Source of the DNA: Sabellastarte sp. h YS-2021
Taxonomy: Eukaryota > Annelida > Polychaeta > Sabellida > Sabellidae
Assembly (NCBI GenBank): GCA_964017235.1
Contig: OZ024938.1
Coordinates: 62,797,816-62,861,815, forward strand
DNA length: 64,000 nucleotides
Reading direction: 5' to 3'
The notes under the pieces were generated by a model. The model was not told where the DNA came from. It searched no databases and saw only the letters and a program-made list of their open reading frames with translations. The translations under genes and the position numbers were made by a program. Below, one piece after another: positions 6,001-30,000 of this stretch. The first letter of the stretch is position 1, and the number at the start of each line of letters is the position of its first letter.

Positions 6001-9000
6001 ACAGTCTTATTTTCTTATTATTATTTGTATAAATCAGAAAATGTTAATCTAATTTAAGTTCTTCCTGTTCAAGTCAATTTGAGTCTTAAAGGAAGTGCTA
6101 TCCACGAGAATCCTATTTAATTATTTTGATTGTAAAATGAGAAAAAGGTATAAGTCTGCCATCATATATAATTACCAAGATATATTGCTGAAATTCAAAG
6201 TTGTTGTTGGCATTATAAATTAAGTTGCATAGTACTTCCACTAGAATTAGGCTGTGATGAGACTGTCGTAGTTTTATCTGTAACATACTTGTGCATTGGA
6301 CAGGTGTATTGATGTAATGACAAGAATGGATGACTTTCTTTATCATTTCACCATCTGTGACTATTAAGAGGGAAATATGCACATTGATTGGCTTCTAAAA
6401 TCTTCATATTCATTTTTGTGAACAACTTGGCTATATTGCTGCAATAAAATTTCACGAGTGTCAAATGGGTTTGAAGTGAGGGAGCATTTTTCATTGGATT
6501 ATAATAAAATTTCGTAAAAGTATCAATGTATTTTGTGAACTGCTTAAAGAAAGTCTTAGGTTTTGAATCATTACAGATTTCTAGTTTTAATTTTCGAGAT
6601 AAATTTTAAAGTCTGAATAAATTGGACAGTTAAAAAGTAGACAGAACTCTAGAAATTTCAAAGACACTCTGTTAAAACAAAAACTAAAATAAGTCATCAG
6701 TCGTCTTTTATCAGATATTAAGTAGTTACCTTAAATGTTCTGTTGCAATCAACTCAACAAATTAGTGTGAAAACAGAATTCAAAAGAAGCACAATTCTAT
6801 TTGAAAACAAAATTTATCATTTATTTCTATTGATGTTACTAATGGGTCTCCATAGGTTACAAAGACAGAATTCTATTTATAATGGTAGTGAAGGTTAAGC
6901 ATTTAATTTAGTGTCAGACTCTTAAGATGAATTTTGAGGGACCTAATAATACTTCTACTTAATCAGGAATTCTGTGTAACTGGGTAAATCGCAATGGAAA
7001 AGCTCTACCAATCAGAATTATGCATAAAGGGTTGTATCCATATATGGATAACATAAAGTATACCACATGAAGTTATTGATGTTAAATCTGGATGGCTTTC
7101 ATCCAGACAATGACTGGATATATGAGGATAATTCTGAATGTGTGGACAATAATGGAAAGGTAAGTACTAAAGCGATGTGTAATCTAATCACAATATTATA
7201 GCACTTAATCTTTGTACCAGCAGATTCCAAAGCATAGAAAAAATAAATATTATAGCTTCAAAATCAGACAGCATTGAAACAAGCATTTAACCATAGTAAG
7301 ACTGGGCAAGCAACTGACGTGCTGGTCAATATAATCTTATCTATGTGTACTTTTATAGCGCCTAATCTCCATGAATTGACAGACTCTAAGGTACAACTGA
7401 ACTAAAACAATGTTAATAATTATTATAGTGGAGTAATAAGGTTGAATAGCTTTGTATAATAAATACCAGTGAAATAAAGGTGACATAATCTCTGTTGAGC
7501 TTTTTTATAGGAATTAATTAGCTAATATTTTTATTCTTGATCTTATTTATTGCAGGTCCTTTCTCTGGGTGCAGATGTTCTACCCGAGTACAAACTGCAG
7601 TCTCCCAGAATCCACCGCTTCACAATCTTACACTACTCCCCCTTCAAGGCCGTCTGGGACTGGCTTATTCTTATCCTAGTCATCTACACAGCCATTGTCA
7701 CCCCATACGTGGCTGCTTTCCTACTCAACGAGAACGATAACCACAGGGTCAAGGACAAAGGTCGTTACACCGACCCCCTCACTATTATAGACTTAATTGT
7801 GGACGTGATGTTTATAATTGACATCCTCATAAACTTCCGCACAACTTATGTGAATAAAAACGATGAGGTCGTGAGTCATCCGGGGAAGATCGCAGTCCAT
7901 TACTTCAAAGGCTGGTTTCTGATTGATGTGGTGGCAGCAATACCATTCGATCTGCTCCTGTTTGGGTCAGAAACAGATGAGGTAGGATATTGGTCAAAAT
8001 ACATTCAGTTAATTGAATGGTAACAGGCAAGAAAGCATGGATTGCTAATTGATGTGGTGGTGACACCATTCAATCTGCTGTTGTTTGAATCAGAAGCAGA
8101 TGAGGCAGTATGGTTGTTATATTGCATAAAATACTTGTCATCCAGCTTTTAAGATATCATTTGCTAAATTTAATTTCTGGTTGATGTTTTGCCTTAGCAT
8201 CATATTTATTTACATAAAGAACATGTCATCCAGTAATACTGGGCAACATAATGTTTGCTACTGGTCACAATAATGAGTGGTGAGACAGTCTACTTAAAGA
8301 TTGCTGCACTTTGCCAGTGCACCATGTGGCAGATACTTATAAATTTTGTGTCGTTGACCAATTGTTAGTCACCACAAGCAAACTTTGAAATTATTTAGAT
8401 TGTGCAGTGATTTAAATTACAGTTAAATTAACCATATTATGGTATCATCACTTTCATTGTATTGATGTTTGGTTCTGAACTTAACACATGTGGGAGGGTG
8501 AAACTACTAGAGTTGGATTCAAAGTTGATCAGAGTAGTATAACCCTATATTTTCCCCTCAAATTAACTGCAAACTATTTTGGTACCAACTTTTACTTTCA
8601 TGTACTAAATCTCTGTGTAGAGAATACTCTGGAATTTATCAGTGAAAATGTTGTGGGGAGGTAACATGACCCCATTTTTGTCCTGTATCACTTCGGTTTT
8701 TTTATACATTTTACGGGAAATGAGTTATCCCACTTAGTGGAACCCCTATATAAGTTTTGATATACAATGTTTCAGCCAGTCAAATCACCATTAAAATTGA
8801 TGTAATTGATTAAAAATTTATTCAACTTGCAACTGAAAACAATTGTCTCATTAAAATGGCCAAGGTCAATTCTACGTTAGCAGAGTTTTGTTTGATGCTA
8901 TTTGGTTGTACATTTGGAAGCTTTAACTAAACTAGAAATCAGTGAACTCATATCAAAATACATACCATTGTGATTACATCAATTATGTGCATAAATGTAG

Positions 9001-12000
9001 GTATAAAATTCTTGTTCATTACATTGAAGCTGATTGTTGTAATTGTCTAGTTTATGATAGTCTGTGTTACCTGCCTGTCATCAAATATATTAATAAGTTT
9101 AAATAAAAAAAAATACCAACACAACAATGTATTATGTTACAGTTAAATGTTAATCCTATTTTCATCTTTTTTTTTTTTTTTTTTCAGACCACCACATTAA
9201 TTGGACTCTTGAAAACTGCCCGATTACTCCGATTGGTCCGAGTTGCCAGGAAACTCGACAGATACTCTGAATATGGTGCCGCAGTCTTGTTGTTGCTCAT
9301 GGCAACCTTTGCCCTCATCGCTCATTGGCTGGCCTGCATTTGGTACGCTATTGGTAATGTGGAACGCCCGTCGTTAGACATTAAAATCGGCTGGCTGGAT
9401 GAATTAGCCAATAAAACACACCAGCCATATGTGAACCAAACTGGCGGGCCGACGATTAAGTCCAAGTACATCACAGCCCTGTATTTCACGTTCAGCAGTC
9501 TGACAAGTGTGGGGTTTGGAAACGTGTCACCAAACACCAACTCCGAGAAGATATTCTCAATATGCGTGATGTTAATTGGATGTAAGTAGACTACGTTATT
9601 TTTATTGTACATTTATACTCGGGGCAATATCTCCTTGTACTGCAGAATTTAAGGACTGTTTGAGCCATCCCGACTACATAGCAGCCTAAGCTCTCTAATG
9701 ACATGGTCTTTCCCCTAAATAAAAGACAGGGGCTCGAGGATGACCATTTACAAAGTCCCTAAAGTTATTTAGGCTGCCATTGAAAATAAGACCCAATGAC
9801 AAAAGACTGCCATATTAAGTGGTCCTGTGATTGAACCCATGTCCTCTGTGTTCTAAGGCAAGTGTGTCATCCACTAGGTCACAATGGCATTTATTCTCAA
9901 TTTGTTAAAGCTGGTTTCCAAATATAACTCAAGTCCAATGAATTTTGTTGTTACAGAAAATAACTCATTTGAGGTCAATTTTGAAAAGATATATATTTGG
10001 GAAAAAGTGGTATAAAAGTTTTAATTTCAGGTTTTATAGCTCATTCAACAGCCAGGGTCATGTTGAAACAGGTCTGACTATTGATTATTACCTGTGGGAG
10101 TCCAGCCCACAAACAGGTGACAGCCTGCAATTAGATGCCAAACTTGCTGACCACTAGGCCTCTGAGGACCTCGAAATGAAACGGGAAAATATTTCATAAG
10201 TTTATAAATATGTTTATATCCTGCATTTCTTTAATCTGTTCTTAATTTTTCTTCACAGCCCTACTTAATTCACATCTATCTTTGGAAATGCCATGGAGTA
10301 AGAACTGTAGAAATTTGCCGATAAGCAAACCCTTATGATATCTATTTCTTTAAATTCTATGGTATCCTTGTCAAATTTATGATTTTTATGACAACTTTAG
10401 AACATTTAAGATCTAAAGTATTAAAAAATTGTATAAAATCTGATTATTGTTGCATACTTCTGAAGGGTGCCCTCAGGGTTAACATTTCTGTCCCATAACC
10501 CTTATTACAGCACAAATAGCTTCATCAACTTAACATTCACAATCCACATCTATCTTTAGAAAGACCATATTCTAGTCATTTTACAACTAACTTATTGATT
10601 AAGTGTAACAGGTATATTTGGTTTATAATATTGTGTGTCATTAAATATTTAATTCCTACTTTGGTGTGAAACATTTCAGTAAAAATTGCACCAACTAATG
10701 TGTTTGAGACTCCATTCTTTTTCAGCAGTGAGAATCCCAAACAGAATCTCAAATAGATGACCAGTAACTTATGACCTGTCCAATCTAGTGTTTATTCCTG
10801 TCACTGCTTTTCCTGCTTTATCAGATTAATATTCTACCCCAATCTGCCTTTTAGAGGTAGGGATGTGGCTCGGGACATATCTGAGTACCTGTGATTTAGC
10901 ATTTACCAGGTGAAAGTACCAGAAAAGCAAAAATGGTAATTGATGTAATCAAATTTATTAAAATTAAAATGTCAAATATCTGTGAAAAAAACAGGTGAAA
11001 ATAATTTTGTGAAAAAATGAATATCAGGTTGATAAAAAAGACTGAAAATTAAGTTTCCGCCAATTATGTTATTCATTAGAATAGGGAACAATAGTTTATG
11101 CAAATAATGCTCGCTAATTGGTCCTTGGATTTTCAACATATTTTGAGTACCCACTTGTCTCGCTACATCCCTATTTCAAAGGAAGCATTTTACTTAATGT
11201 TTACTAATAATGAGTCTAATATCTTTCTCTTTACTCTTCCCCGCCTCCTACCCTCTCTGTACAGCTCTGATGTATGCCAGTATCTTTGGTAACGTGAGCG
11301 CCATCATCCAGCGCCTGTACTCTGGCACAGCCCGCTACCACGCACACATCGTACGCGTCAAGGAGTTCATACGCTTCCACCAAATCCCAAACCCCCTCCG
11401 ACAGAGGGTGGAGGAGTACTTCCAACATGCCTGGTCTGTAACCAATGGCATAGATATGAACATGGTAGGTTCGTCACTGTCGTGATCCGCATGTTGCTAG
11501 GGTGTTGGCATGGAGGCAGTTGTATTACCGGCTGGTTGTTGTTATGGTTGGTTGTCATGGTAATGTTCATGTTTGGTAGCTTGTTGTTGTGACGAGTCCA
11601 TATATTGCCATGGCAACAGATATGTTACTAGATTTTTTGTCATAGTAACAGGGATGTGAAGAACCTGTTGCCAAGGTGACATCCTATCTTGTTGCTATGA
11701 TAGTGACCAGTAGTAATCGTGTTCTTTGTCATGTTGCTACTTGTTGGCATGCTTTTGTTAACATTTTCTTGCATGATTTTTGTGGTTTGTTGTCATTTAT
11801 TATTGTCATAGCTATTAAAGCTGAAACAATGAATCGTACTAATTGATCATTAGGTTATCAAAACACTAGTGGACACCAGTATTGTTCAACTGGTTAATGG
11901 TTAACTGTTTTCTTATGTATATGACCCCAAAGTGGATTTTAAATCTATGACTATTTCGAGTTAAGATCGTAAAACGTTTCAAATTAAAACATGTTATGTG

Positions 12001-15000
12001 TATGTTGAATTTAAAATATAAAAATGTGACATAATTAGCTAATTACTGAACAATTTGGGTGAGCTTTCACTTTTCTATCATCTGGCAATCCGCCATATTG
12101 CATGTTTACATCTGGAACACATGTCTATATGACCCTTTTGGTATTTTCTCAAACATGCTAAACTTTACAAACAGTTAATTGGTTAGTCAACATTGAATGC
12201 AAGCGACTACCCGGCTAGCAAATTTTTACTTATCGTTTCAGCCTTAACAGCTATTGTTTCTCAGATCCCAGTAAATTCCCAATAAAGATGGTGTTGGCTG
12301 TGAACTGTAGAGAAAATTAGTACAAAATGTATATATTGGTACAAGTCATTTATTTTAATATAAATGTATCTGGTTGATATTGTTGATGTGATTTTATTAG
12401 ATTTTCCATTTTAATTGAATATTGAACCATTTTGCATCCAACACCAGCCAAGTTGTCAGGTATATGTAACTTATCGTTTATATCCATAAGCTTTCCCAGA
12501 TGATGGAGTATTAGTATAATTACCTCAAATTTATGCAATATCCACTTGGTTTCAATTAGGGATGGGTCGGTAGTTCCGGTATCTCGGTATCGAGACCATT
12601 TTACTGAAATACCGTAATGAGATTTTACAACCGCCACCTCGCTTTCTAGCACATATAATGGAAGCAAGAGTTAAAATATTAGAAACATACCCTAAATCTG
12701 AAGAAATTATAAGCTTTTATTTCATATTTTCGTCCATTTAGACTTTTATAGCGATACGTTGAGCAGAACTGCCATGTTTTGGTTACGACACTTTATAACC
12801 TCATTTTCGCTTGTCAACTAATATAAATGAAGGGAAACTTAAAATGGTGGACAGAAACCAGAAATATGAAGATATTTTATCTTTTTATTGCATATTTCGT
12901 GCATTTGGGAGCTTTTATTGCGACGTTGTTATCCTAAACGTCCATGTTTGTTTGGGGAGAACTAAAACGCGGAGTTCGAATTCGGTACGGTTTTGCATTG
13001 GCGACCTCCCGATGTACATATTTTTCATACCGACCCATCCCTAGTTTCAATTATACACTAGACTAATAAAAAAAACTGTAAAACACCAAGACTGCTGTTT
13101 TCACAGATTCTTTATTACAACTTCTGCCTGATCTGCATGACTTGAAAAGTAGTTTTTGGTTGCATTCCATATTTTGAACTAAAAACGCAGTATTTCTGAA
13201 AAATTTCTAGCTATATTAACTGTAGTGCTGTCATGGTGTATGATGATGATACCTGCTAATCTGTTAAGACTTTGAGAAGTCTTTAAAGTAATTTTTTTTC
13301 ATAATGGATCTAATTTCTTGTATATTTGGACAAGGTATATCACATTAGTTTTTACTTTACTGTTGGGTTTGATTGGCTCATTGTTTTTTTATCATTCTGC
13401 TGGTGTAAAGCAAGCTTTACAGCAAAATTCTACTCAGTTTTTATGTCTACATGTTTATCTTGCATGTGGTATTGTATTGGAACAATGTTGTTGTGTACTC
13501 AAGCCTGGACCCATATGTACTCAGACTTAGTATAAAATGCTAGCAAATGTGGACAATGGTGAGATTTGTTTACATGCATTTGATATTGAGAAAATGAGTT
13601 TGACCTTGATTTTTATTTCATTTCTAAGTTATTTATGTCCACATTATTTCTTTGTAGCTTTGATGTATGCCAGTATTTTTGGTAATGTGAGTGCAATAAT
13701 CCAGAGACTGTACTCGGGCACTGCCCGCTATCACAACCAGATGCAGAAGGTGCGGGAATTTATCCGCTTTTATCAGGTTCCCATGCCACTCAGTATGCGA
13801 CTCGAGGAGCACCTGCTGCGGGCATGGACTTACACAAATGGCACGGATATGGCTTTGGTAAAGAGTTAATACAGACGTAAAATACATATTAAATATGGAT
13901 ACATATGCTAAGGCTGATGGTACTGGTAGGGTGAAGTGTGGCCTTATCCAGATCAAACATATCATTTGGTTCTAGTAAAAAAACAACACTGGGGAAGGAA
14001 TCAATTATTGATATTAAATTTTTAACAAAATGTCTGTGTTACCACCTGATGTTGACTCTGAACATCCTACATTGGTATTAAAAAGGGGTTTGTGGGTAAA
14101 TTTCAGTTGTATCCAAAATTTTGATACATGTGTATGAAAAATATAATTTTCTTTAACAGATACAAGATTCTGTACTAATAACAGTAAACAGTTTTATCCA
14201 TGTCTAATCCAACAATAGGTCGTTTTTATAGTGATATTTTAGGAAAGTAATTTGTATTTTGAATACACTATTTTATTGTATTTTCTTGTAATGGTCTTAT
14301 GGATTACCATACTTTTGACAAAGTCATCAAATTTAAAATGTTACATTTTACATTGACTGATGAAGGTCTTGTGTTAAATTGGAGTTGACGATCGAATTTA
14401 CTGCAGATATATTAGAACAGTTAATCTGCATGCTTTTACTTGTTGTCTTTCTTTACCACATTACGCTTTTTATGTTGTGATCAATCGTGTTGTGGGCATT
14501 TAATGTTTCATGCTTATTTCATGTATTCGGAAATGTTACCTTCAGTTTATTTGTTGTCTGTGTTGGTTTTCTTGGTGTTACGTTTTTAAAGTTTCTTTTT
14601 ATTTTCACTCAAGAACATTTTTGGAGAGATTTTTGATCAGTGGGTAAATTGATTATAATTTAAAATTAATGAGTGTAAACAGAAACAAGTGGAGATGATT
14701 GAATATAAATTTAATGCTAATTGATTAATATAAAGGTTTATAGAGGATTTCTCTGGCATAAAGCTCGTATCTCAGCCACACTGTAGTATTTGTTGGTATT
14801 TTAGATAAGGCATGTAAACACATTTATAGGTATACCATGTAATTAATCCCTTACATTCAAATTAGAGTAACCGTTACTACTGTAATTATATTAATTAATA
14901 TTTATTAATCATATGACACTTTGATATATTAGTATATATTTACTCTAATATCACATTTCACCAAAAAATAGTGATTTTTAATTGATCTTTGACTTCTCGT

Positions 15001-18000
15001 TGGATATGGGGCTTTTCTTTAACTAAATATAAAGGGTTTTTCTTCATTGTTATATATTCACCATGTCTCACTGTACACATAATACATGTATCTTCATACA
15101 TCCAGGTATTAAAAGGCTTCCCAGAATGTCTACAGGCAGACATTTGCCTGCATCTCAACAGACAGTTGCTCAATAACTGTAAAGCATTTGAAGGTGAGTC
15201 TGTGTCTTTGTAGTTATTTATAAATTTGTAACTTCTGTAAGAACAATCTGTGACAACCTGTGTATTATATGTGTGGGGAAGGAAGTCAGCAGGTGCAGAC
15301 CGGCCCTTGACCACTTTGTAATTTTAAGGAAAAGCAAACTCTGGTTCAAGGTAGCCATGCTGGTGACTTGGTTCAGTGTTGACCTATGTCCTGCATTACC
15401 CATTAGGCCACAGTGACCGATAAAATCTCTTAAGTTAATTTGTACACTTTGTATAATCCGTTAAGTATTGTGAAAAAACTTTTCACTCTATTGCTGTATA
15501 AATTCCCAAGTATTTGCAAACTCTTTGCTGCTTAGTTACAATAAATGATAAATTTGTTTACCAGGCGCCAGTCCAGGCTGTCTCAGGGCGTTATCCATGA
15601 AGTTTAAGACCACCCACGTTCCCCCTGGTGACACGTTAGTTCATCGTGGAGACATCCTAGACGCACTCTACTTTATATCCAGGGGATCCATAGAAATACT
15701 CAAAGATGATGTTGTCATGGCAATATTGGGTAAGTGTTTTGTAAGTGCCAGCATTGATACATAATGCTTGTCAGTAGGGACATTCATTTCACTGTCTACC
15801 TCTGTCATTCTGTGAAATCCATCCGTATTAGATATTGTTCTACCATTTTCCACGTGTCTTTTGTCAGCACATGATGAGACTGTCATTCACTACTTCCCAA
15901 TATCCCGCCTATTTGTCTCTACGGCTATGACACGGTCCTCAGATACTTGAAAACGGACCATCTTTGCCAAAATGCTTAATGCAAACTGGTGAATCTAGAA
16001 CCTGTAAAACTCTTAGGGTATTGTTTATTTTCATAAATAACCCAATATTCAGCCAGCTTGGTCTACTTTGTATTTAGTTTTTAGTATAAATATTCAAAAT
16101 TTGTAACATTTTAGATTTCTGTTTCAACGAATTTGTATAGATCAGCCACCATATTAATTTGCTCACTGGATCTTCCATTTTACAACCAATAGGTTTATAT
16201 GAGTGCTAGTCATGAATATTTTCAGATAAATTTTGACCTATTTACTGATTATACATTCAAAAGTTTGAATATAGTGGCTGCCATGGCTTCTCACTTCATG
16301 TAAAAACTACAGACTTAAGTTAAAACAGGTGGGCCAGTCTTTATAATGGGAATATATAACATACACTTGTGGAGTTACTTATCATTTATATACGTACAGG
16401 AATTCTTGCATAAAGCACTCACACTCAGTTTATGTAACATAAAACAACTTAAATACTTCTAAATAAATATCAATTTTAATAAAACAAGAGTGAACTTGTT
16501 AAATATCTAAAGTTAACAATAACAAAAAAAAGTTAAGTTGATGTAATATCCACTTTTTATGTAACTGAGTGATAATTGGGAAAAGTTCTGCAGATTTTAC
16601 CAATGAAATATTTCCTCAATTACCCAATCAGATACACAGACACAGCCATGTCATGTCAGAATAGAAACTCTACTGTGAATGTTTCCCCATTTTCCTGGTT
16701 AAGTTACTGTTCCTGTCGTGTAAACCTTTGGTCCAGCATATTGTTCACTGTGTTTACTGACCATTTTTTGGGAATATTTTCCAGGTAAAGACGATGTCTT
16801 TGGTGAGAACATCTGTCGACATGAGACTGTGGGAAAGTCGAGCTGTAACGTACGAGCCTTGACGTATTGTGACCTGCACAAAATACACCGAGACGACTTA
16901 CTGGATATTCTGGAAATGTATCCTGAGTTTGCACATCACTTCACCATCAACCTGGAAGTCACGTTTGATCTCCGAGATGTAAGATTTCTTCATTATTTTT
17001 CTCTGTGCTACTGAAACTGGCTCATCTTGTTACAACCCTTTCAGAAATTTTATAAATAATCAATAATAACAAGTACAGTTCACCTCATATTTCATTCAGC
17101 ATGGGAGTGTGTGTGTGGGGGGGGGGGGGTAAAGTGCTAACAAACACAACCTCTAATACCCCTTTCAAACTACAGCTGATATCACCCGTGGTAGGCCCGT
17201 TTGGGGAAATATTCCCGTCTGACGTCTGTAGACGACCTTGTGAGTCAGTGGCGAACCGTCCATTACCTTGCGAGTCCTACGGAAGTTTTAAACTGTTTAA
17301 AATTTCTGCCTCTGAATTCAGTACCGTGGGCATGTGCATGCGATTTCACGCATGTGCATATGAATTTTCTACTACGGTAACGGAAGGTGTGGTCCACAGT
17401 GTACATAAGGTTGTGATGTTGTCATCTTTTGATCTAATACAGTGACATAAGGTGAGTTAAGGTATTGGATGTTTCGCCAAAGGTGAGTTAAGGTTAATGG
17501 AGATTGTCTCTCGGTGACCATTGTTTGTTGTACTGTCATCTGACTGTTATTGATGGTTAAAACTAAGGCTGTGACGAGTGGTTAAAATCCATCCCGGTAC
17601 CCGAGCTACGCAAATTCGTCTCGCACTTCGGTATTCGTGTGTTTTAGTATGCATGTTTTTCCTCTCCATAAACAAAGCGGTGGTTTCCGGAAACGATGTC
17701 TTAGCATTAAAATAGTGGTGAAAGGTAATCAAAACTTATTATATTGTTATAAAATGAGGAGTATTATATAAAATTTCCCAATATACAAAGAATTCTGCCA
17801 TTTTGCAATGTTGTCATTCTTTGTCGTCCTAAAAAACGTGATAAAGTGGGCGACAATATAATATATTACAGTAGTTAACGATGATCGGGTGGACCAGAAA
17901 GCACTCGAGATCTTCCCAAATCGACTCCACTCGCGAATGCCGACCACCCGGTCGCAGCCTTAGTTAAAACACTGTGTCCAATCAGTGGCCGTCTGCCTGT

Positions 18001-21000
18001 AATGTGCACAACTTGGACGAAATGGGGCAACCTGGGGAGGGGGGGGGGGGGGGGGACAGTTCTGCCACCGAGAAAAACTTCTGACCACTGGATGACTGTC
18101 TGTAGTGTGAAAGGGGCCAAACCATCAGAATAATGTAAACAAATCTCTGGTGACTATGATATCTTGGTCCCTTAGAATTTGTTACTACAAAATAAGCACC
18201 TTAAAAGTTTAATAATAGTATGTAAAAAATTGGTGAAAGCGACGATAAAGACAAGTGAAATTAATTCTAATTTTTCCCAATAGGAGGAGTTGCAGGTGTG
18301 CCAGCCACCAGAAATACCAGATGACAAGCCAAAGTACACATTTCTACGCAATCGTAAAAGCAAGTCCTCAATATACAGGAAGTCTATGCCTGCAGGTGTG
18401 TGCCCTAGACTGTTGAAGTAGAACCAGTGTGATTAGATGTTATGTATAAGTTTGGCCTGAATAATTTGCAGATTCAACATGTACTGTAGTCACAAACAAG
18501 GCTACTAATGGATTTAACAGTTAATAGTAACTATTGTTAATACATCATCTTTAACAACCTGGGTAGATATGTTTCCCTTTCTTGAAATGGTGTCCTGGAA
18601 TAAAATTTTTAAGGCAATTCATTATACATGTTTGGAAACATATTTCCAAACTTTTCAATACAATATAATGCATAGAATACTTAACACAAATTATAACCTT
18701 TACAAATGGAAAATTATTGATAACCCCTTGTGTAATTATTGCAATCATGTTGATACAATTGAACATCATTTATATCTGTGTGGTTGTAGTAAGCAATTTT
18801 GGGAAAAATTAGAAATATGGATGCTAAATTCTCTGCATCTTCACAGTAATCCAAACTTTACAATATGTGAAGTCCTTTTTGGAACTAAACCTAAAGGAGA
18901 AACACAATCAGTGAATAAATTGATAAATATTATAATAACAATAGCAAATTGGTACTTAAACCACTGTAGAACAAATAAACAGGAATTAAATTTTACTTAT
19001 TGTTTAAGTATTGTGAAAGAAAAATTAGATATTTACAGGTGCATTTTCATGGCAGAAGCTGAAGGAGTTAATAGAGACATTTATCGGCTTTTGGAAGAAA
19101 AATGGAATAGCTTGAATAGCAAGACTTAAAATTATAAAAGAAATGTTGTACGCTACGTAACACACAAAGTATTTGATTACTGTTCCTTATATTAATAAAA
19201 GCATACAGAATATGGAAGAGCAGCAGAATAAATGTTATTTTTGCCTGAAGTAATTGAAATTGTTCCAGTTAAATTCTGTCACTGTTTCCTGTGAATTTTG
19301 TACATCTATATACTTTCTTTGACTGTATTGTACTGGATTTTTTGTATGAGTATGTAAAGTGTGCATCGTTTGTCCTTGTTTTTTTATGTGTATACTTTCT
19401 TCTTTTTGTATGTAATGCATGTCAAAAAAAAAAATTTAAAAAAAAAATAAAAAAAAAAACTATTGTTAATACAAATAAACATTAGACTAATTCTAAAAAT
19501 TTTAAAAATTCTTAAGATGTGGCATGCATTTGAACATTAATTATCTGATTAGAGTAAGAATTTAAAATTCGCCACCTCTAAAACCTTAGTTAATTTTATG
19601 AAGAAAATGATGTTTTTGTCTAAAAATTGGTATTTTTCAGTTCCAAAAGCCTTAATTTACTATACATTCAACAAATCTCACCACAATTCATTTATTTTAT
19701 TAGTATTTTCACGTGTGGCGAATTTTAGATTCCTGGCGAATTTTAGATTTGTTACTCTACATATATACTGGAAGAGAAAGATTGTATAATACAATAAATT
19801 TTAAAATACAAAAAAAAACATGTAAAATATGAAAATTCCAATAATAAAGTATCACTTCATGCAGATTCTACAATATATATCATGTATTGTACAGATTTGA
19901 TTAAACTTTTTTCTTGCAGTTGAAAACAAGACCACCAAAGCATTTAACCCAAGCCGGGCACGACGTTTGAATCGCCGTCACCGTACTACGGCTGAGGAAA
20001 TCGCCATGGCAATGTCGAGTGATGAGGAAGGGCAGTACAGAGAGAGTGGACATGGGATTCTTGAATTTTCTCCCGAGAAAGCAGGACTCGACATCACGCC
20101 GGCAAATTTCGACTTCAGAGATGATCACAGTCGGAGAAATGTACCTGGAGCATTCTCGTCTATAGCAGGTGAGTATTTTATTATCAACAAGTATTTAATA
20201 TACAGTAGATATGGTATAACTAGAACTGCATCAGTAGAATAGTGTCACAGGTAGAAGTAGTTTCCGAGTCCTGACTTTTATTGCACTAAATACAAGGATA
20301 TCTAGAACTTTTGACTTTCAGAAAATGACCATAATTAAAACTTAATTTGAAACACAAAGTGTTACTTTTTACCGGAAATAACAAGGCATAAGTAGAATCT
20401 TAAAATTCTGCATGTACAGAAATGCAAAAATCCCTGAAAGAGGTGACGACTAGCACCATAATTGTGTTTTAGTCTGTACCAGATTTAACCATAACTTATT
20501 AAAGCACCCAAGTATGAATACCAAACAAACACATTACCCAGAAGAGTGATTACACAAGTATTAATCATTACAAAAGAGTAAAATTGAATGATATCAAAAC
20601 TGTTCTGCTAGAAATCACAATAGCATTACACCAGTCAGGTGTTTAAATGGAACCGGAGTTATTTTTAACTGTGACAATATGTCTTAATTGTAAATTTTAT
20701 AAGGTTTTCCTCCTGTATTTACAGGTGCCCTGAATTCCTTCCTCTCAGGAAACAACCAGCAAAGAGTGAGTCAAGAGCAAGCACCTCTGCTGGCATCAGC
20801 AGACCAATCAAATGCACTACCCAGTCCTGCTCAAGATAAGGTACCAATAAAATTACTGCAGCAAGAGTAGCTAAATTTAAATGATGTTGTCTTTTTATTG
20901 CGTTAATACATCTTACCCATTGGACAATTGCTTTACCGGTCGGTGCGACCGGTCCCGCCAAATGACAGAAAAAGTCATCCTGTGCTATACCGGTCGGGTA

Positions 21001-24000
21001 CTGTGCATTTGCTATGTGGCGCATCGTACTTCCTTCCTGATATGACATTGTTATGTCACGGCACCTTATTCATTTGGCGGGTGTACTGTGCAGACGTGTT
21101 TTTTAAGAATTTCGATTCATTATAAAGCACTTGAAATTACGGATTACAGTTTCATGATTGCAATCTTAACATCATGATATGGATGTACAAATCATTTTGG
21201 GTATTGTTTTCACCCATGGTGTCCGGATGGGCGGGCGGGCGGCGGGAAATAGTTTGTCCAGGCTGTATCTCAAAAACCGTAAGGTGTAGGAAGTTCATAC
21301 TTGGCAGGGACATTGGTTGGGGGATGTAGGTGTGCAACGTCATGGTGTGACCTTGATTTGACCTTTGACCTTGCCGTAGTGACCTCAACCTTTAAAATCT
21401 TGTCCGGGCTATATCTCGGAAACCGTAAGGTGTAGGAAGTTGATACTTAGTAGGGACATTGGTTAGGGGGTGTAGGTGTGCAGCGTCATGGTCTGACCTT
21501 GATTTGACCTTTGACCTTGCTGTAGTGACCTTTAAAATCTTGTTGCACCTTTGGGTCTGTCTGTTGATGCAGATTAAGCACTGTTAAAGTCATATTAGAA
21601 TTCATTAAGAATTTCCTTTTGCAAGTTCCCATTGTAACAGATGGAATTTCATCAAATGAGCCACAGGCTTTTCTCCAACACCACACATAAGCATTCATTG
21701 AATGTATTGCCACTTCTGTATGCATGGGTAATATTCAAAACATCCAAACCATAATTCGGCCATTTTTGGTTTATTGATAAATGCTGTCATTTTATTATTT
21801 AATTGTCTTGTTTTAATACCTCATCTTTACATACATTTCTTTTCCTTAGATATTATTTTCTCTACTTAAGCATTATTTGGACCTTAATATAACTGACACT
21901 GCTCTGAAAGTATCTTGAACTTTGTACTGTTTCACTACTTCTATATCTCATGGTGTTGAAAAATATTTCCCCGGGCTGTGGGGTACAGGCATCTCTGATG
22001 CTATTTTATATTTTTAGCAAATATTATACCAAGTGATCATGTAGAAATTTTGCCAAGGCTTACTGATCAATGTTTACATATCTTCAGAATTGTGGAAATG
22101 TTTTAAAATTACGACTGGTTTGTTCTCAGGTTAAAATTGAACTAAATAAATAATTTTTGGTCATAAATACTTCACAATAGTGCAATTATATCGGTTTGTT
22201 AAATGTGCTTATATTGCAACGTCACTGTAAAATTGTGGCGACATCACTAAGCCAATTTTGACTGAGGATGACTTCTATACTTCATTAGAAGGCTGGTCAA
22301 AATCACTTCACCTCAAGAAATAGCCTCACAAATTGAGTCTTAGTCTCAGGCAACCAATGGATATGAACTAATTACCTTCCAACTGCACAGGCTAAAGAAG
22401 AGGTGCCCACAGTAATATGACTTCTATAAAGAGGGCAGATCCTAAAATAATGGCTTACAAATTGAGACAAAAACCACCAATCAAATGCACTGCCCAGTCC
22501 TACTGAAGATGAACACAAATTTTTGCCACCTAGTCAGAAGGCCTCATGAAACTTCTGTGTCTTAAGTCTTCAGTAAAGACAACTAATCTTATCAGAGTGT
22601 ACTCTTGTCTCATAAATATTCATGACACTATTAGAGTTGTATTTTACTTTTTATGTCTGCTGACTTGTCAGTCAGCTGACATTATGTCATCACTCTGCGG
22701 CGTGGGCGTATGCGTACGCGTCCGCGTGAACAACTTCTTCTCCAAAACTACAAGGCCTAGAGACATGCTGTTTTTTTTAAAAGATACCTTATCTATCGAG
22801 GATGAAAAATTGTTCAAGGCATGCAAATCTGTCTGTTTGTCTGTTTGCTAGAGACATTACAAGGGGGGTACCCCCACCAAAAGTGTGAAAATTTCAACTT
22901 TTTATCACAATTTTCTCAGTGACTATTGCAGGGATTTCTCTCATATCTTGCATATATGTACTAGGCCAGAGGTAGATTCTCTTGTGTGAGTATGAGACCT
23001 GGATCTGTCTTACTTTTTTTTTAATAAATTCTTTTAATAATTTTTAATGCATTAAAATTCATGAAATCATGCACTAAATCACTTATAACTTCAAAAGTGT
23101 TGCTTTTATTACGCTACAATAGCTTACCATGTGGGACTTAATGCTGTTCTCGGGTTGCCACACCCGGGGCCAACGTCTTAGAAAAAAAGATCGTTCTTGT
23201 TAGCCACCGGATATACTGGTAGTTGTCGTCACGTGATAACTTCTGACCAATCGCCCTACTTTCTCGTTGGCCACGATGACTGGTAGCAGTTTGTAAATAT
23301 ACAGACATTTCTATTTATTTCTCAGTTCTTACTTATTGTTGGAGGCTAACATTTGCATATTTCTTTATTTCTATGCTATAGATCATTCTGTAAAATTCTG
23401 ATTTTCCCACCTTAAGTATTTCTTGACTTTCGCGTGTTTTTAGCTTTCCTCGGTTCAGGCAATTCTATTGTACGTCTTTTATTGCGTATAAAATGTCTCT
23501 CCATCAAGCAAATAAAGACAAACCGAGAGCTCAGAAATGCCGCCATTTTTGCTTTAGTTTTGATACACATAATTTCTGCCCTACCTGTAGGGAGGCTGGC
23601 AAGGGAGATGACCCCTGTGTCACCTTTGAAACCCCTTGTGAAATTTGCACGTCTTTCACAGATGAGCAATTACAGAAAATTTCAAACAGGAAGTGGTATC
23701 TGAAAAAGCAAAAAGCGACAACTAGTTCCAAAGATGAACTAGATCTTTTGGGTGAAGGCGACGGGGATTCCTTCACTGGATCCAATGCAGACCTCGAGTG
23801 TACTGCTGATAGCCTTTTTACCTCTCCCCCCCATCCACAACCTCTTGCCTTCAGTTCCCTGTCCTTGAAAACACCAGCCAAGACTATTCCACCCACCCCT
23901 GGCACGGCTTTGCAAAATAAAATCCGGAAAAATATAGAAAAATCACTGGGTGATTCCTTAAATATACATTTACAGCAGCAAATGGGTACCTTCCAGGCAT

Positions 24001-27000
24001 CCATGTTGGAAGCTTTTCAGTCACTCCGAGAGGAGTTGGCTGCAAAACAGAAAGTCGAGGTAGAGTCCTCGCTTCTTGCTTCAAAACCTGGCTTGTCCAG
24101 TAATACTGCTGCCCCTCTGGATTTGCCCCCTCGAGATCTGGTACTAACATCCCAAGCGAGGCTATGGATGTGGACTACGGTCCAGCACTACCTCCTCGTC
24201 TAGTATCTACTCAACTTTCCTCGGATCAGTACGTTGCCCCCTCTGAAGGTCATCCCGAAGAGGTCTCGTACTCTCACAAAAAGCAAAGCCATAAGCAGCC
24301 AGTTGACCCGAGCTCTGCCTCGGACCAACTAATTGAGGATTCCGATGAACCTCGGATCCCTTCTTCTAGATCCAAAAAACACTCTGACAAGAGCAAACAT
24401 AAATCAAGATCTAGATACGTGTCATTTTCCTCAGAGGAGGATCACTCCCCTGTAGCCAGACACAGGTCTTCTAAGCCCTCTAGGGCTCAGCCCTCAGGAG
24501 TAGCTTCTGATCAAGACCTCCCACAACATGATCCAGACCCCCCTTATTATAGGGAAGTAGCTTTGTCTGACATGCCCTCACAATACTCTGAAGAAGTAGA
24601 CACCTTCAGGCGTATTCTGTCTCTCCCTGACCCCAGGGAATCTATGCCCAGGTCGTCCACTTCAGTGTTGGGTCTGGATGATGAAAAAGGCCGTCAAGAG
24701 CTCAGACCTAGAGGTCCTTCCTCTATTCTACCACTTAGCTCAGTTATCAAGGACGCCTTTGATAAATTCCAACATGACTTTAAGGCTGCCAATTTATCTG
24801 AGGGAAAATATGTCAAGCCTCCTCCCTCAACTTCAAAGTGGTACAAGGTGGGACAACCAACTTTTCAGGACAAAATTCAGGAGTTGAATACGGACTTCGC
24901 TAAGATCTGTATTACTCCTAGACCCTCTGGGCCCCCAGTAGCCAGAGTTCCCCTGCCAGTTCTCAAGGAGCTGGAACTTCAGGCTAGACAAAATATCTCT
25001 ACCCTCAACTTCACCGCTGCATTTGCCAAAACCTCCTCTTCTTGCAATGCTTCATTGGAAAAATGCCAACATAGCATCAAATCTACGGTCAAGAAGATAA
25101 AATCTCAGATTCAGAAAGGTGCCAATCCTGAGAAAGCGGCAAAGCGCGGATATGAGGAAGTAGCTGACTACTTAGATTTTTGGAACAAGACAGTACTTGT
25201 CCAACACAGGGCCCTCAATTGTCTCAGCAAATCTCTAGCCCATATTTTGCAGAGGGAATTATACTCTATGGCTAATACCGGCTTGCTCAGACGCGAAGCC
25301 GAGATGACTCTATTACATCCACAATTAGGAGAAACGAGACGTCAAGAACTCAGGAACTCGTCCTTTTGGGGCCCTTCCTTGTTCGAGTCTCAATTAGTGA
25401 AGGAAGGTGAGGACTTCCTTCTCAAAAAAGGCACCTCAAAAGATTCTCAGGGTTTTGTACCCTACCAGAATAAGCCCTTTTGTGGTCCCCACAAGAAAAG
25501 AGGCTCCTACAGGAAACGCCCCTATGGGGGCAATACCTCTCAAAGCAGTAACCAGTCCTTTCCCTCGGGAAGAGGAAAATCCAACTTCAGAGGCTCCAGG
25601 GGTCGTTTTCGACCCCACAATAGAGGAAGGGGGCGTGGAAACCCCCCTCCCCAATGACTCCTCCAAAGCCTCACTCAGTCCACCAGTAGGAGGTCGCCTC
25701 TGTTCTTTCAGGAGAGACTGGCTCACAAACAAATGTTCTCAAAACATGTTAAACATTATCACCAATGGCTACGTTCTGCCATTCCGTTCAAAGCCAAACT
25801 TGATCAGATTTCCTCTGATTCTGTCAGAGTACAAGGCCCAACAAAAAGACCAAGCCTTGGCTACTTGTATCCAGTCTCTCCTGTCAAAGAACGCTATCGA
25901 AAGGGTAGACAATGTAAAATCTCTCGGGTTTTACAGTCGCCTGTTCCTAGTACCCAAGCCTCACCAAAGGTGGAGGCCAGTCATAGACTTAAGCAGGCTC
26001 AATACTTTTCTACACGTAGAAAAGTTCAAAATGGAAACTCCAGAGTCCATCAGGACCTCCCTGATTCCAGGGGAGTGGGTATCGTCGATAGACCTGTCGG
26101 ACGCTTACCTACACATCCCCATCCACCCAAACTCAAGGAAATACCTAAGGTTTTGCTACAAGGCTCAGGTGTTCCAGTTCACCTCCTTCCCGTTCGGACT
26201 AGCCACAGCCCCCCAGGTCTTTACAATGATCGTAAAGGAAGTGAAACTAATGGCCCTCTCAAGAGGACTCAGAATTCACCAATACCTGGACGACTGGCTG
26301 ATCAGGTCCCAGTCTCAGGAGGAAGCCCAAGTGAACACTCAGGCAGTAGTAGAACTGACTCAGTCCTTGGGGTGGATAATAAATCAGGAAAAATCAGAAC
26401 TGAAACCTACTCAGGTGTTTTCGTTCGTGGGCTACGAATACCACCTAGATTCAGCCCTTGTAAAACCCACTCAAGAGAGATGGCTCAAACTTCAGGATTT
26501 GATCCTACGACTCAAGTCAAAACGTATTTTGACTGCAAGATGTTTGATGTCTCTAATTGGGTTGCTAGCCTCAACGGAGAAAATGGTCCCGGAGGGACGC
26601 CTTCACATGAGGCCCTTTCAGTTTCACCTCAAGGAGCACTGGAGATATCCTCAGTCGCTGGACAACCTCCTTCCCTGGACAGAAGCCATTGCAGCCCACC
26701 TGGATTGGTGGCAAAATCCCTCCAATGTGATGAAAGGTGCAGGCCTTCATCCCAAAGACCACAGTATCCAACTCTTTACCGACGCCTCAAACGAAGGTTG
26801 GGGCGCTCACTTAGACCAAAATTCTACAAAGGGTCTGTGGTCGGATCGGGAAAAAAGGCTACACATAAATGTCCTAGAATTGAAGGCGGTCTCCCTGGCC
26901 CTTCGAGACTTCAAGGACCAGTGCCAGAATCAAACAGTGTTGGTTGCGACGGACAACTCAACAGTGGTAGCCTACATCAACAAACAAGGAGGAACACACT

Positions 27001-30000
27001 CGGCAGAGATGTGTGCTCTCCTGTGGAAGATCATGACCTGGTGCCATCACTACCACATAACATTGAAAGCCAGGCACATTCCAGGGTGCCTAAATGTGAT
27101 GGCCGACCTGCTATCCAGGTCCAACCAAGTGCAGTCAACAGAATGGTCTCTGCACCCACAGGTCTTCAAACAGATCTGCCAGAAGTGGTTCACACCTCAT
27201 GTAGACTTATTTGCCACTCACCTGAACCACAAACTCCCTCTATACGTGTCTCCTATCCCAGACCCAAAGGCCTGGGACATAGATGCTCTGAACATAAACT
27301 GGACCAACCTCACGGCCTATGCGTACCCTCCTACGGCTCTCCTTCACAAGGTGATCCAAAAGATCAGGCAATGTCATTGCCTGATCATCGTAATAGCCCC
27401 AGGCTGGCCAGGGATGCCCTGGTTTTGGGACCTAGTGCAGCTCTCAACAGAGATCCCACTGCAACTCCCAGTGTCAACAACCCTACTCAAACAGTCCCAC
27501 AAGCTGGTGTTCCACAACAACCCCCAGCACCTGAATCTCCACGCCTGGTGTCTAGGAGCGGACAACTCCAGGAACAAGGCTTCTCTGTGGAGGTGGCAGA
27601 GAGAATTGCTGCCCCTCAGCGGTCATCAACAAGGACCATCTACAAATCAAAGTGGGCCCTATTTGAAAAATGGTGCAGAGAAAATTCGGTGGATTTCTCC
27701 ACTCCATGTGTGAAACAAATCTCAGATTTCTTCATGTATCTGTACCAAGACTTAAACAGGCGCCCCTCGACCATTGATGGTTACAGGACTGCAATCGTTG
27801 ACACTTTGGGCCCAACGGCCCAATATATTGCACACAATGCAGACCTTCATAGGTTACTCTCCAGTTTTCACAGGGATCGTCCTAAAAGTTCCAGAAATTT
27901 ACCCAAGTGGAACCTTTCTGTTGTCCTTAACGAGCTCACCAAAGCACCATTTGAGCCCATGAAAGACTCAGACCTCAAACATCTTACTCTCAAAACTGCT
28001 TTCTTGCTAGCCTTGGCCTCCGGCAAGCGCCGCAGCGAAATCCATGCCTGGGTCGCTAACAAAGTAGCTAATTTAGGCCAATGGGAAAAGGTAGCCTTGT
28101 TCCCTTCTTCTGATTTCATAGCCAAAAACCAACTAGCAAGAGAAGGTTCTCAAAGTGTGTCACCAGTGACTATTCCTGCTTTGACTACCATTGTAGATAG
28201 ACAGTTTAAAGAAGACAGGACCCTGTGTCCCGTGCGGGCCCTGAGGTTTTATTTGGACCGAACTAAAGACCTGAGAGGGTCTCGTTCTCTCCTTTTCATC
28301 TCCTTTAAGAAAGGACATACCTCAGACATCAGACCCGCTACACTATCTTCATGGTTGAAACAAACCATCTTACTTTGTTACAAACAAGCAGATCAACAAG
28401 CCTTGGACTTGGTCCAAGTCAAAGCGCATGACATCCGGGCCTTCGCGGCCTCTAAGGCCTTTTACGGTGGGGTATCGGTGGACCAAATCATGCAAGCCTG
28501 TCACTGGAAAGCTCACAACATATTTACAAATTTTTACCTAAAAGACCTTACTTGGTCGGACACCGACAACAATTTGTACCTGGGACCCGTAGTGGCTGCA
28601 CAACAAGTCCTAGATCCTTCCCCTCAGACCAGTTGTCCTCGGAAAGAAAAAAGGGGGGGGGGCACATCCGCTACAACCAAGTCTTCAGGAGTCATTCCCA
28701 GGATCTAGGTATTCCTTTACCTTCAAGATGTTACGGGTAAGGTCATTTTATCCTTTAATTATCAAGTAATTTCTATTAAGGACTTATTTAGTTGTCATTA
28801 ATCTCATATTCAGGTTTTAAAAAAAAAAAAAATTTATGAGAGGCCCAACCACTGGGTTGGTCAGTCACACGTGAAGGGCCCTTTGGGACCCTTAGACCTC
28901 GAAGTGAGCACTGCTGCACTTCCGTCCTACAATCAAACATCTAGACAGTTTTAGCACTGTCTCTCATTTACTTAGGTTTTTGGCTCGTTAAAGGCCCGGC
29001 TTTCGGGATCGGGGCACTGTAAATGGGACTCAGACTGGTATTTCTGGCACTATTCTATACTTTTAATTCAAAATCTTAGAAAAAAATTACATATCTTCCA
29101 GTCTCAGCTGTAATCCCGCCACCGGGCGGTTGAATTCAGCATTAAGTCCCACATGGTAAGCTATTGTAGCGTAATAAAATTGGAAATTTTAATTACTTAA
29201 ATGTAGCTTTTATAAGCTACAAGCTTACCATGTGGGACTTAGGAGAGTCCCACCCTGCCTCCCCGCTGTTTACAGCTGAGGGGTAGGTTTAAAAAATTTC
29301 AACGAGAAAGTAGGGCGATTGGTCAGAAGTTATCACGTGACGACAACTACCAGTATAACATAGTAAAATTTCAGACCTGTAGCTCATGGCATAGCTGAGT
29401 AATAGCTACTTTTAGGTTATCACTGTTGAGTAAATCACTTATAACTTGAAAACTATTGCATTTAGAGTATTTTGTTTCAATATGTTATTCACCTATTTTG
29501 AGGTCAGCTATAACATAGTGAAGTTTCAGACCTGTGGCTCATTTCATAGCTGAGTAATAGCTACTTTGAAGTTCTCACTGTTGAGTAAATCAGTTATAAT
29601 TGGAAAACTATTGCATTTACAGAAATTTGTGCAAATATGTTATTCAGCTACTTTTGGGTCAGCTATAACATAGTGAAATTATAGACCTATAGCTCATGGC
29701 ACAACTGAGCAATAGCTATTCTCAGGTACTGACTGTTGAGTAAATCAGCTATAACTTGAAAAATATTGCATTTGGAGTATTTTGTTAAAATATATTGTTC
29801 ACCTACTTTTGGGTCAGCTATAACATAGTGACCTATAGCTCATGGCATAGCGGAGCAATAGCTATTTTCAGGTTCTCACTATTGAGTAAATCAGTTGTAG
29901 CTTGAAAACTATTGCATTTACAGTAGTTTGCTTAAATATGTTGTTCACCTACTTTTGGGTTAGCTATAACATAGTAAAATTTCAGACATGTAGCTCATTG

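What the first reader, a model, noticed from the sequence alone, without database searches (positions are those of the whole stretch)
11265..13857. Mutually exclusive exons give the Erg channel two C-linkers on one pore
Seen: exons 11265-11464 and 13658-13857 are both 200 nt, both GT-AG, with identical entry and exit phases. Both encode the same S6 and GTARYH, then differ at 21 of 41 residues in the first C-linker helices. Since 200 = 3n+2, using both or neither shifts the frame, so exactly one must be included. Known: the C-linker couples the cytoplasmic ring to the gate and sets deactivation and voltage dependence in KCNH channels. Inferred: the gene makes two channels with the same pore and drug-binding aromatics but different gating or subunit coupling. 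I do not know of this switch being described in Erg channels.
Basis: partly seen in the sequence, partly recalled or inferred. Interest (0 to 1): 0.88.

Follow-up and report, generated by a model that had tools for sequence, protein, structure and literature searches.

The report
Swappable gating exon in Erg channel
An invertebrate relative of the human heart potassium channel hERG carries two interchangeable versions of the exon that joins the pore to its internal gating ring, and the second version looks like an old coding exon rather than a relic, so the animal probably makes two channels with one pore but different opening and closing behaviour; no RNA was available to prove it.

Summary
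Exons a (11265-11464) and b (13658-13857) are both 200 nt, AG/GT, same phases, identical over 26 residues (end of S6 to GTARYH), then 21 of 41 residues differ. Including both gives a stop at the second codon of b; skipping both stops within the next exon. Exon a is the ordinary Erg linker. Exon b is coding, not debris: ten of its first 26 codons differ from a's without one amino-acid change. A second, unnamed species has a b-type exon (P0124), 32/41 identical to b but 19/41 to a. Nine b residues occur in none of 198 ordinary Erg linkers; P0124 shares four. In the genome, b as protein matches b, a and single linker exons of three other KCNH genes. Best reading: an old mutually exclusive exon pair making two channels with one pore but different C-linkers, probably differing in gating. 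Splicing and function are inferred; no RNA or electrophysiology was reachable. Such pairs are common in voltage-gated channels (PMC9741552); my searches listed none in Erg. New member of a known kind, at an unusual and testable place.

The parts
7556..7981 (+). Erg exon: S1-S3 region ([13 protein letters not shown] ... GSETDE)
   Evidence: AG/GT flanks; reads as S1-S3 of an Erg channel
9188..9581 (+). Erg exon: S4, S4-S5 linker, S5, turret, pore helix, selectivity filter (SVGFGN), start of S6
   Evidence: hERG match 2.4e-126 for its join with exon a and the next exon
11265..11464 (+). Exon a: end of S6 plus first C-linker helices, ordinary version; 200 nt
   Evidence: up to 35/41 identical to ordinary Erg linkers
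11465..13657 (+). Intron between exons a and b, 2193 nt: too long for one exon to exclude the other by crowding
   Evidence: motif counts are weak (27 uncorrected tests)
13658..13857 (+). Exon b: same end of S6, divergent C-linker ([41 protein letters not shown]); 200 nt
   Evidence: b-type relative P0124
15106..15193 (+). Common downstream exon: next C-linker helices ([19 protein letters not shown]...)
15565..15729 (+). Erg exon: CNBHD
   Evidence: by eye the same as in P0008 and P0011
16785..16978 (+). Erg exon: CNBHD, ending ...EVTFDLRD at the intrinsic-ligand end
   Evidence: by eye the same as in P0008 and P0011
18284..18395 (+). Probable Erg exon: C-terminal tail
   Evidence: open frame and splice sites in phase; no relative tested for it alone
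19920..20168 (+). Probable Erg exon: C-terminal tail ([17 protein letters not shown]...)
   Evidence: by eye like VGILEFTPARAGQDVTP in the bryozoan Erg P0008
20725..20840 (+). Tentative Erg exon: C-terminal tail (later exons not traced)
   Evidence: open frame and splice sites in phase; its end resembles a stretch near 22478-22513, so it may include repeat sequence

Best explanation
This is an Erg (KCNH2/6/7-type) potassium channel gene in which the exon for the end of S6 plus the first C-linker helices was duplicated in tandem long ago. One copy (a) stayed ordinary; the other (b) diverged under selection. Splicing includes exactly one, because 200 nt = 3n+2 makes any transcript with both or neither hit an early stop (shown by translation). 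The result would be two full-length subunits with the same voltage sensor, pore, drug-site aromatics and CNBHD, differing only in the first C-linker helices, which sit under the S4-S5 linker and between subunits. Inferred: b retunes opening, closing or subunit coupling, because in hERG this part contacts the S4-S5 linker of the neighbouring subunit. Both exons keep a positive residue at 681 and E699, partners named in that work, but b replaces 694, 695 and 700-703. Since Erg channels are tetramers, a and b subunits could mix. Shown: anatomy, frame logic, coding selection, a b-type exon in another species. Inferred: both exons used in RNA, exclusivity, gating effect.
For: Exon pair with matching length, phase and splice sites. 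Both / neither give early stops. Codons 1-26: pS 0.55, pN 0.017; all 67 codons: pS 0.756 (saturated), dN 0.24. In simulated neutral decay with 32 substitutions, 0 of 20000 runs kept the first 26 residues and 59% gained a stop. P0124: 32/41 to b, 19/41 to a, at most 25/41 to ordinary linkers; joined with b at 100/98 on the linker tree; it reads on as V-N, as an intron starting GTAAAY would. Five matches to b in the own genome: b, a and three other KCNH genes (only best candidates are scored). Reported contacts of the hERG S4-S5 linker with neighbouring C-linker residues 681, 699 and 702 (PMC8873449, passages); E544-R681 bridge hypothesised to stabilise the open state (PMC5907531, passages). H687Y and R694H stand in a table of long-QT variants (PMC7212895, passage); b has Y687 and S694, though Y687 also occurs in 8 of 198 ordinary linkers.
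Against: No RNA evidence. No full-length b isoform was among the 120 rows listed of 368 hits or the 120 listed of 3215, though clustering at 90% could hide it. The 14 rows named as bivalves have the ordinary linker. P0124 comes from a 611-base contig of unknown species that shows only the b exon; whether an a exon lies beside it cannot be checked. Exon b's donor matches the consensus at 5 of 9 positions, the lowest of the ten exons. The contact study found that its most efficient paths did not run through the neighbour's C-linker.
Confidence: 0.75

Rival explanations
1. Exon b serves mainly as a switch for unproductive splicing: including it with a, or skipping both, makes a stop and lowers the amount of channel; the b protein itself matters little.
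For: Both / neither give early stops upstream of later exon junctions; the intervening intron is long and all splice sites are GT-AG, so nothing physical was found that prevents double inclusion.
Against: The b reading frame is kept: no stops, unchanged S6 end, 32/41 residues shared with P0124. A pure poison exon need not preserve its protein.
Confidence: 0.12
2. Exon b is an unused relic of a tandem duplication.
For: No transcript seen; weakest donor of the ten exons; nine residues unseen in 198 ordinary linkers.
Against: Selection signature and neutral simulation; b-type exon in another species.
Confidence: 0.05
3. Both exons are real but b belongs to a separate short transcript starting in the a-b intron (a C-linker/CNBHD fragment), by analogy with the alternative start of hERG1b.
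For: The frame is open upstream of b from 13531; hERG1b has its own N-terminus (PMC5907531, passages).
Against: By eye the upstream reading is intron-like; b keeps a normal acceptor and the S6 end, which a cytoplasmic fragment would not need.
Confidence: 0.04
4. Assembly error: two alleles or paralogues collapsed into one locus.
For: None found.
Against: Synonymous differences are saturated and flanking introns do not match; no other copy was found in the genome (only best candidates are scored).
Confidence: 0.01

Closest known systems
[quoted passage not shown]
   Same: Tandem homologous exons, one chosen, isoforms differing in one module; often old; some change gating or selectivity (section 16 read)
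   Different: Those are calcium, sodium, BK and leak channels. The four words beginning with KCN in that paper's main text are KCNMA1 twice, KCNAB2 and KCNIP4; supplements not read. Here the module is the C-linker of an Erg channel.
hERG1a/1b isoforms of KCNH2
   Same: Isoforms of an Erg gene with the same pore and different gating kinetics; co-assemble (PMC5907531, passages)
   Different: hERG1b differs at the N-terminus only; here an internal exon would swap the C-linker.
Slowpoke (BK) alternative exons
   Same: Isoforms of a potassium channel that differ in calcium sensitivity or conductance (PMC9741552, section 16)
   Different: Different channel family and module; the BK 'C-linker' is a 15-residue stretch (PMC7371421, abstract in listing), to my knowledge not homologous.
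Bdelloid rotifer Erg gene models (P0127-P0132, P0165)
   Same: An Erg gene with a duplicated exon-sized module
   Different: There the turret/pore segment is doubled within one predicted protein; the linker is single and ordinary

Membership tests
Erg (Kv11) subfamily of KCNH channels | Better match to hERG than to Eag-type channels over S4 to C-linker | tested here: met
   hERG 423 bits against 235 for KCNH5 and 234 for KCNH1; no full Elk channel was in that list
Erg (Kv11) subfamily of KCNH channels | SVGFGN filter and S6 aromatics at hERG 652 and 656 | tested here: met
   LTSVGFGN and SLMYASIF with either exon
Erg (Kv11) subfamily of KCNH channels | N-terminal eag/PAS domain | tested here: inconclusive
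   One PAS-like exon piece about 50 kb upstream (L013:9677-9775, 54.5% over 33 residues); link to this gene not shown
Mutually exclusive tandem exon pair | Neighbouring homologous exons of equal length and phase | tested here: met
   200/200 nt, same phase, 135/200 nt identical
Mutually exclusive tandem exon pair | Double inclusion or skipping breaks the frame | tested here: met
Mutually exclusive tandem exon pair | Second exon under coding selection / conserved in relatives | tested here: met
   (one relative only, species unknown)
Mutually exclusive tandem exon pair | Transcripts with one or the other and not both | not testable with these tools
   No RNA reads or cDNA of this species were reachable
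Mutually exclusive tandem exon pair | Optional mechanism: crowding by a very short intron | tested here: not met
   Intervening intron 2193 nt; one possible mechanism, not required for membership
Mutually exclusive tandem exon pair | Optional mechanism: clashing splice-site types or a long AG-free zone (distant branch point) | tested here: not met
   All GT-AG; AG-free zone 48 nt before a and 27 nt before b; not required for membership
Mutually exclusive tandem exon pair | Optional mechanism: competing intron base-pairing | tested here: inconclusive
   22 inverted-repeat pairs of 14-23 nt; the best (19 nt, 95%) looks like the ends of a small element inside the a-b intron; no chance expectation and no related introns to test conservation

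The most novel reading that the evidence does not exclude
A splice switch in the cytoplasmic gating ring: in some invertebrate lineages one Erg gene makes two subunits that assemble into mixed tetramers, so that cells set the deactivation and voltage range of their Erg current by the a:b ratio, without touching the pore. b may act mainly as a modulatory subunit.
Probability: 0.4. Interest if true: 0.72.

Novelty: new member of a known kind. Interest (0 to 1): 0.55.

Why it matters
The C-linker start of Erg channels varies little: the 198 linkers retrieved here collapse to 41 distinct sequences. Exon b is a natural variant with nine residues found in none of them, on an unchanged pore. If used, it is an evolution-tested chimera for asking how the gating ring controls the gate of hERG-type channels. 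It would also add a KCNH channel to the list of voltage-gated channels diversified by exon pairs.

Tried and rejected
Further linker copies: tblastn of each exon against the window and 15 loci held gave no other hit to a or b below E 1 except the three paralogues (the loci cover 80 kb upstream of the window and about 1.5 kb each side of the paralogue exons). Duplicates of other Erg exons in the window: none, save that the last 12 residues of exon 20725-20840 resemble 22478-22513 (75%, E 0.016; similar at DNA level too). b in bacterial/archaeal genome contigs and viral contigs: 38 and 10 pattern matches, none a relative. Doubled-linker reading of the top-scoring proteins: by eye P0125 and P0126 are broken gene models, and the rotifer rows have a doubled pore segment with a single linker. 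Whether a, b and P0124 form one clade was neither supported nor rejected (p-AU 0.243), so the age of the duplication relative to the animal phyla is open. Splice-regulator motifs: TGCATG, GCATG, TGTTG and TTGTTG are somewhat frequent in the a-b intron (reached by 0.023, 0.007, 0.003 and 0.007 of 300 simulations), but 27 uncorrected tests were made; not used as evidence.

Literature: ten searches answered; judged by the titles and abstract starts listed, none describes an alternative C-linker exon in a KCNH channel. Lists were capped (20 of 26, 15 of 242, 15 of 21), the library holds only open-licence papers, and no supplements were read.

Rows dropped: of 206 library proteins (P0003-P0208), 198 gave a linker; P0123, P0124 and P0125 were set aside and five did not match the extraction motif (P0034, P0040, P0068, P0081, P0114). 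These 206 are the listed part of 368, 2 and 3215 hits, ranked by similarity to queries holding exon b, so they are not a random sample. The tree used 26 of them plus the window's; that used 26 linkers plus a, b, P0124 and three paralogues.
Full report
What is there. The window holds part of an Erg-type potassium channel gene on the + strand. Exons at 7556-7981, 9188-9581, 15106-15193, 15565-15729, 16785-16978, 18284-18395, 19920-20168 and 20725-20840 join in frame with either exon a or exon b. The last three are tail exons with weaker support. The S4-to-linker join with a matches hERG at 2.4e-126; exon b with the next exon matches hERG at 1.4e-46. Splice sites are AG/GT throughout.

The exon pair. 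Exon a (11265-11464) and exon b (13658-13857) are each 200 nt, enter and leave in the same phase, and share 135 of 200 bases. Both encode [26 protein letters not shown]; after that 21 of 41 residues differ. Joining both gives a stop at the second codon after the a-b junction; joining neither gives a stop within the exon at 15106. So only single inclusion yields a full channel. This is arithmetic, not evidence that the cell does it.

Which exon is unusual. From 206 library proteins I extracted 198 ordinary Erg linkers, 41 of them distinct. In the 41 variable residues exon a matches them at up to 35, exon b at up to 27; the least similar ordinary pair shares 29. Of the 21 differing positions, b has a residue unseen in all 198 at nine (hERG 691, 694, 695, 700-703, 711, 714), a at three (677, 697, 707), and nine lie within the variation seen. 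So a is the ordinary exon, with a few changes of its own, and b is the divergent one.

Exon b is coding and old. In the first 26 codons, 10 codons (11 bases) differ between a and b and no residue changes: pS 0.55, pN 0.017. Over all 67 codons synonymous differences are saturated (pS 0.756) while dN is 0.24. Random substitution of exon a with 32 changes left the first 26 residues intact in 0 of 20000 runs (uniform substitution, a simple null). One-kb flanks of a and b share only an 11-base chance match. A short-query search returned two proteins: the window's own reading and P0124, an 80-residue protein from a 611-base contig of unknown species. P0124 is a b-type exon: 32/41 to b, 19/41 to a, at most 25/41 to ordinary linkers, grouped with b at 100/98 (the bootstrap had not fully settled). 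It shares S694, H700, L701 and T711 with b and reads on into V-N, consistent with an intron donor at the same place. The b exon is therefore older than the split of these two species. It is one relative, and only its b exon is visible.

Genome context. The genome held is 1.79 Gb. Exon b as protein finds five places: b, a, and single linker exons on C3, C2 and C20 at 52, 46 and 41% identity (only best candidates are scored). By eye the C2 and C20 genes look like Eag and Elk, and the C3 gene like a second, divergent Erg (its next exon is 83% identical to this gene's). No further copy of the linker exon was found in the window or the loci held.

Taxon. On a tree of 27 Ergs without the linker, the window's protein lies outside a clade of the ten bivalve rows (97/89). 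It is nearest by path to a nemertean, an annelid and a flatworm, without a supported partner. I call it a probable lophotrochozoan and leave 'mollusc' open. No protein named as gastropod or cephalopod was among the rows listed.

How it would work. [quoted passage not shown] Simulation work reports contacts of the S4-S5 linker with residues 681, 699 and 702 of the neighbouring C-linker, though its most efficient paths did not use them (PMC8873449, passages). A bridge E544-R681 is hypothesised to hold the open state (PMC5907531, passages). Exon b keeps R681 and E699 (exon a has K681) and changes 694, 695 and 700-703; P0124 keeps Q at 702. I infer retuned gating or subunit packing, not loss of function. 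H687Y and R694H are in a table of long-QT variants (PMC7212895, passage), and b has Y687 and S694; Y687 also occurs in 8 of 198 ordinary linkers, so this is only suggestive.

How exclusion might be enforced. The 2193-nt intervening intron rules out crowding; splice sites are all GT-AG; AG-free zones are 48 and 27 nt, so a distant branch point is not indicated. The inverted repeats found give no clear pairing candidate. That leaves regulators, undetected RNA pairing, or removal of wrong products through the early stop. The data do not decide.

Novelty. Tandem exon pairs are a known and enriched device in voltage-gated channels, one of them dated to more than 610 million years (PMC9741552, section 16). 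The KCN words in that paper's main text are KCNMA1, KCNAB2 and KCNIP4. My ten literature searches listed no alternative C-linker exon in a KCNH channel, judged by titles and abstract starts, within an open-licence library and capped lists. I rate it a new member of a known kind, raised in interest by where it sits: a slowly evolving gating element of a medically central channel family.

Noticed in passing
P0127-P0132, P0165 (bdelloid rotifer Erg proteins): All seven rows named as Rotaria or Adineta carry two tandem turret/pore segments before a single linker: possibly a second kind of alternative Erg exon (pore-swapping), joined in the gene models.
   Followed up: partly
L005 (G000:C3:128959866-128963057): A second, divergent Erg-like gene: linker 59% identical to exon a, next exon 83% identical to this gene's.
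   Followed up: partly
window 22478-22513: Twelve codons ([12 protein letters not shown]) resemble the end of the tentative Erg exon 20725-20840 (75%, E 0.016), also at DNA level: a partial copy or a shared repeat.
   Followed up: partly
window 23427-28705: Long ORFs that by eye resemble a DIRS-type retroelement (reverse transcriptase, RNase H and tyrosine recombinase stretches), downstream of the last Erg exon traced.
   Followed up: no
window 18518-19126: 203-residue ORF between two C-terminal Erg exons that by eye resembles the end of a retroelement protein.
   Followed up: no
window 12554-13046: About 490-bp segment in the a-b intron bounded by a 19-nt inverted repeat, 95% complementary: probably a small transposable element.
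   Followed up: no
window 11465-11864: Start of the a-b intron is rich by eye in TTGTTG and CATGGTAAC-like words; TGTTG occurs 16 times against 7 expected over the whole intron.
   Followed up: partly
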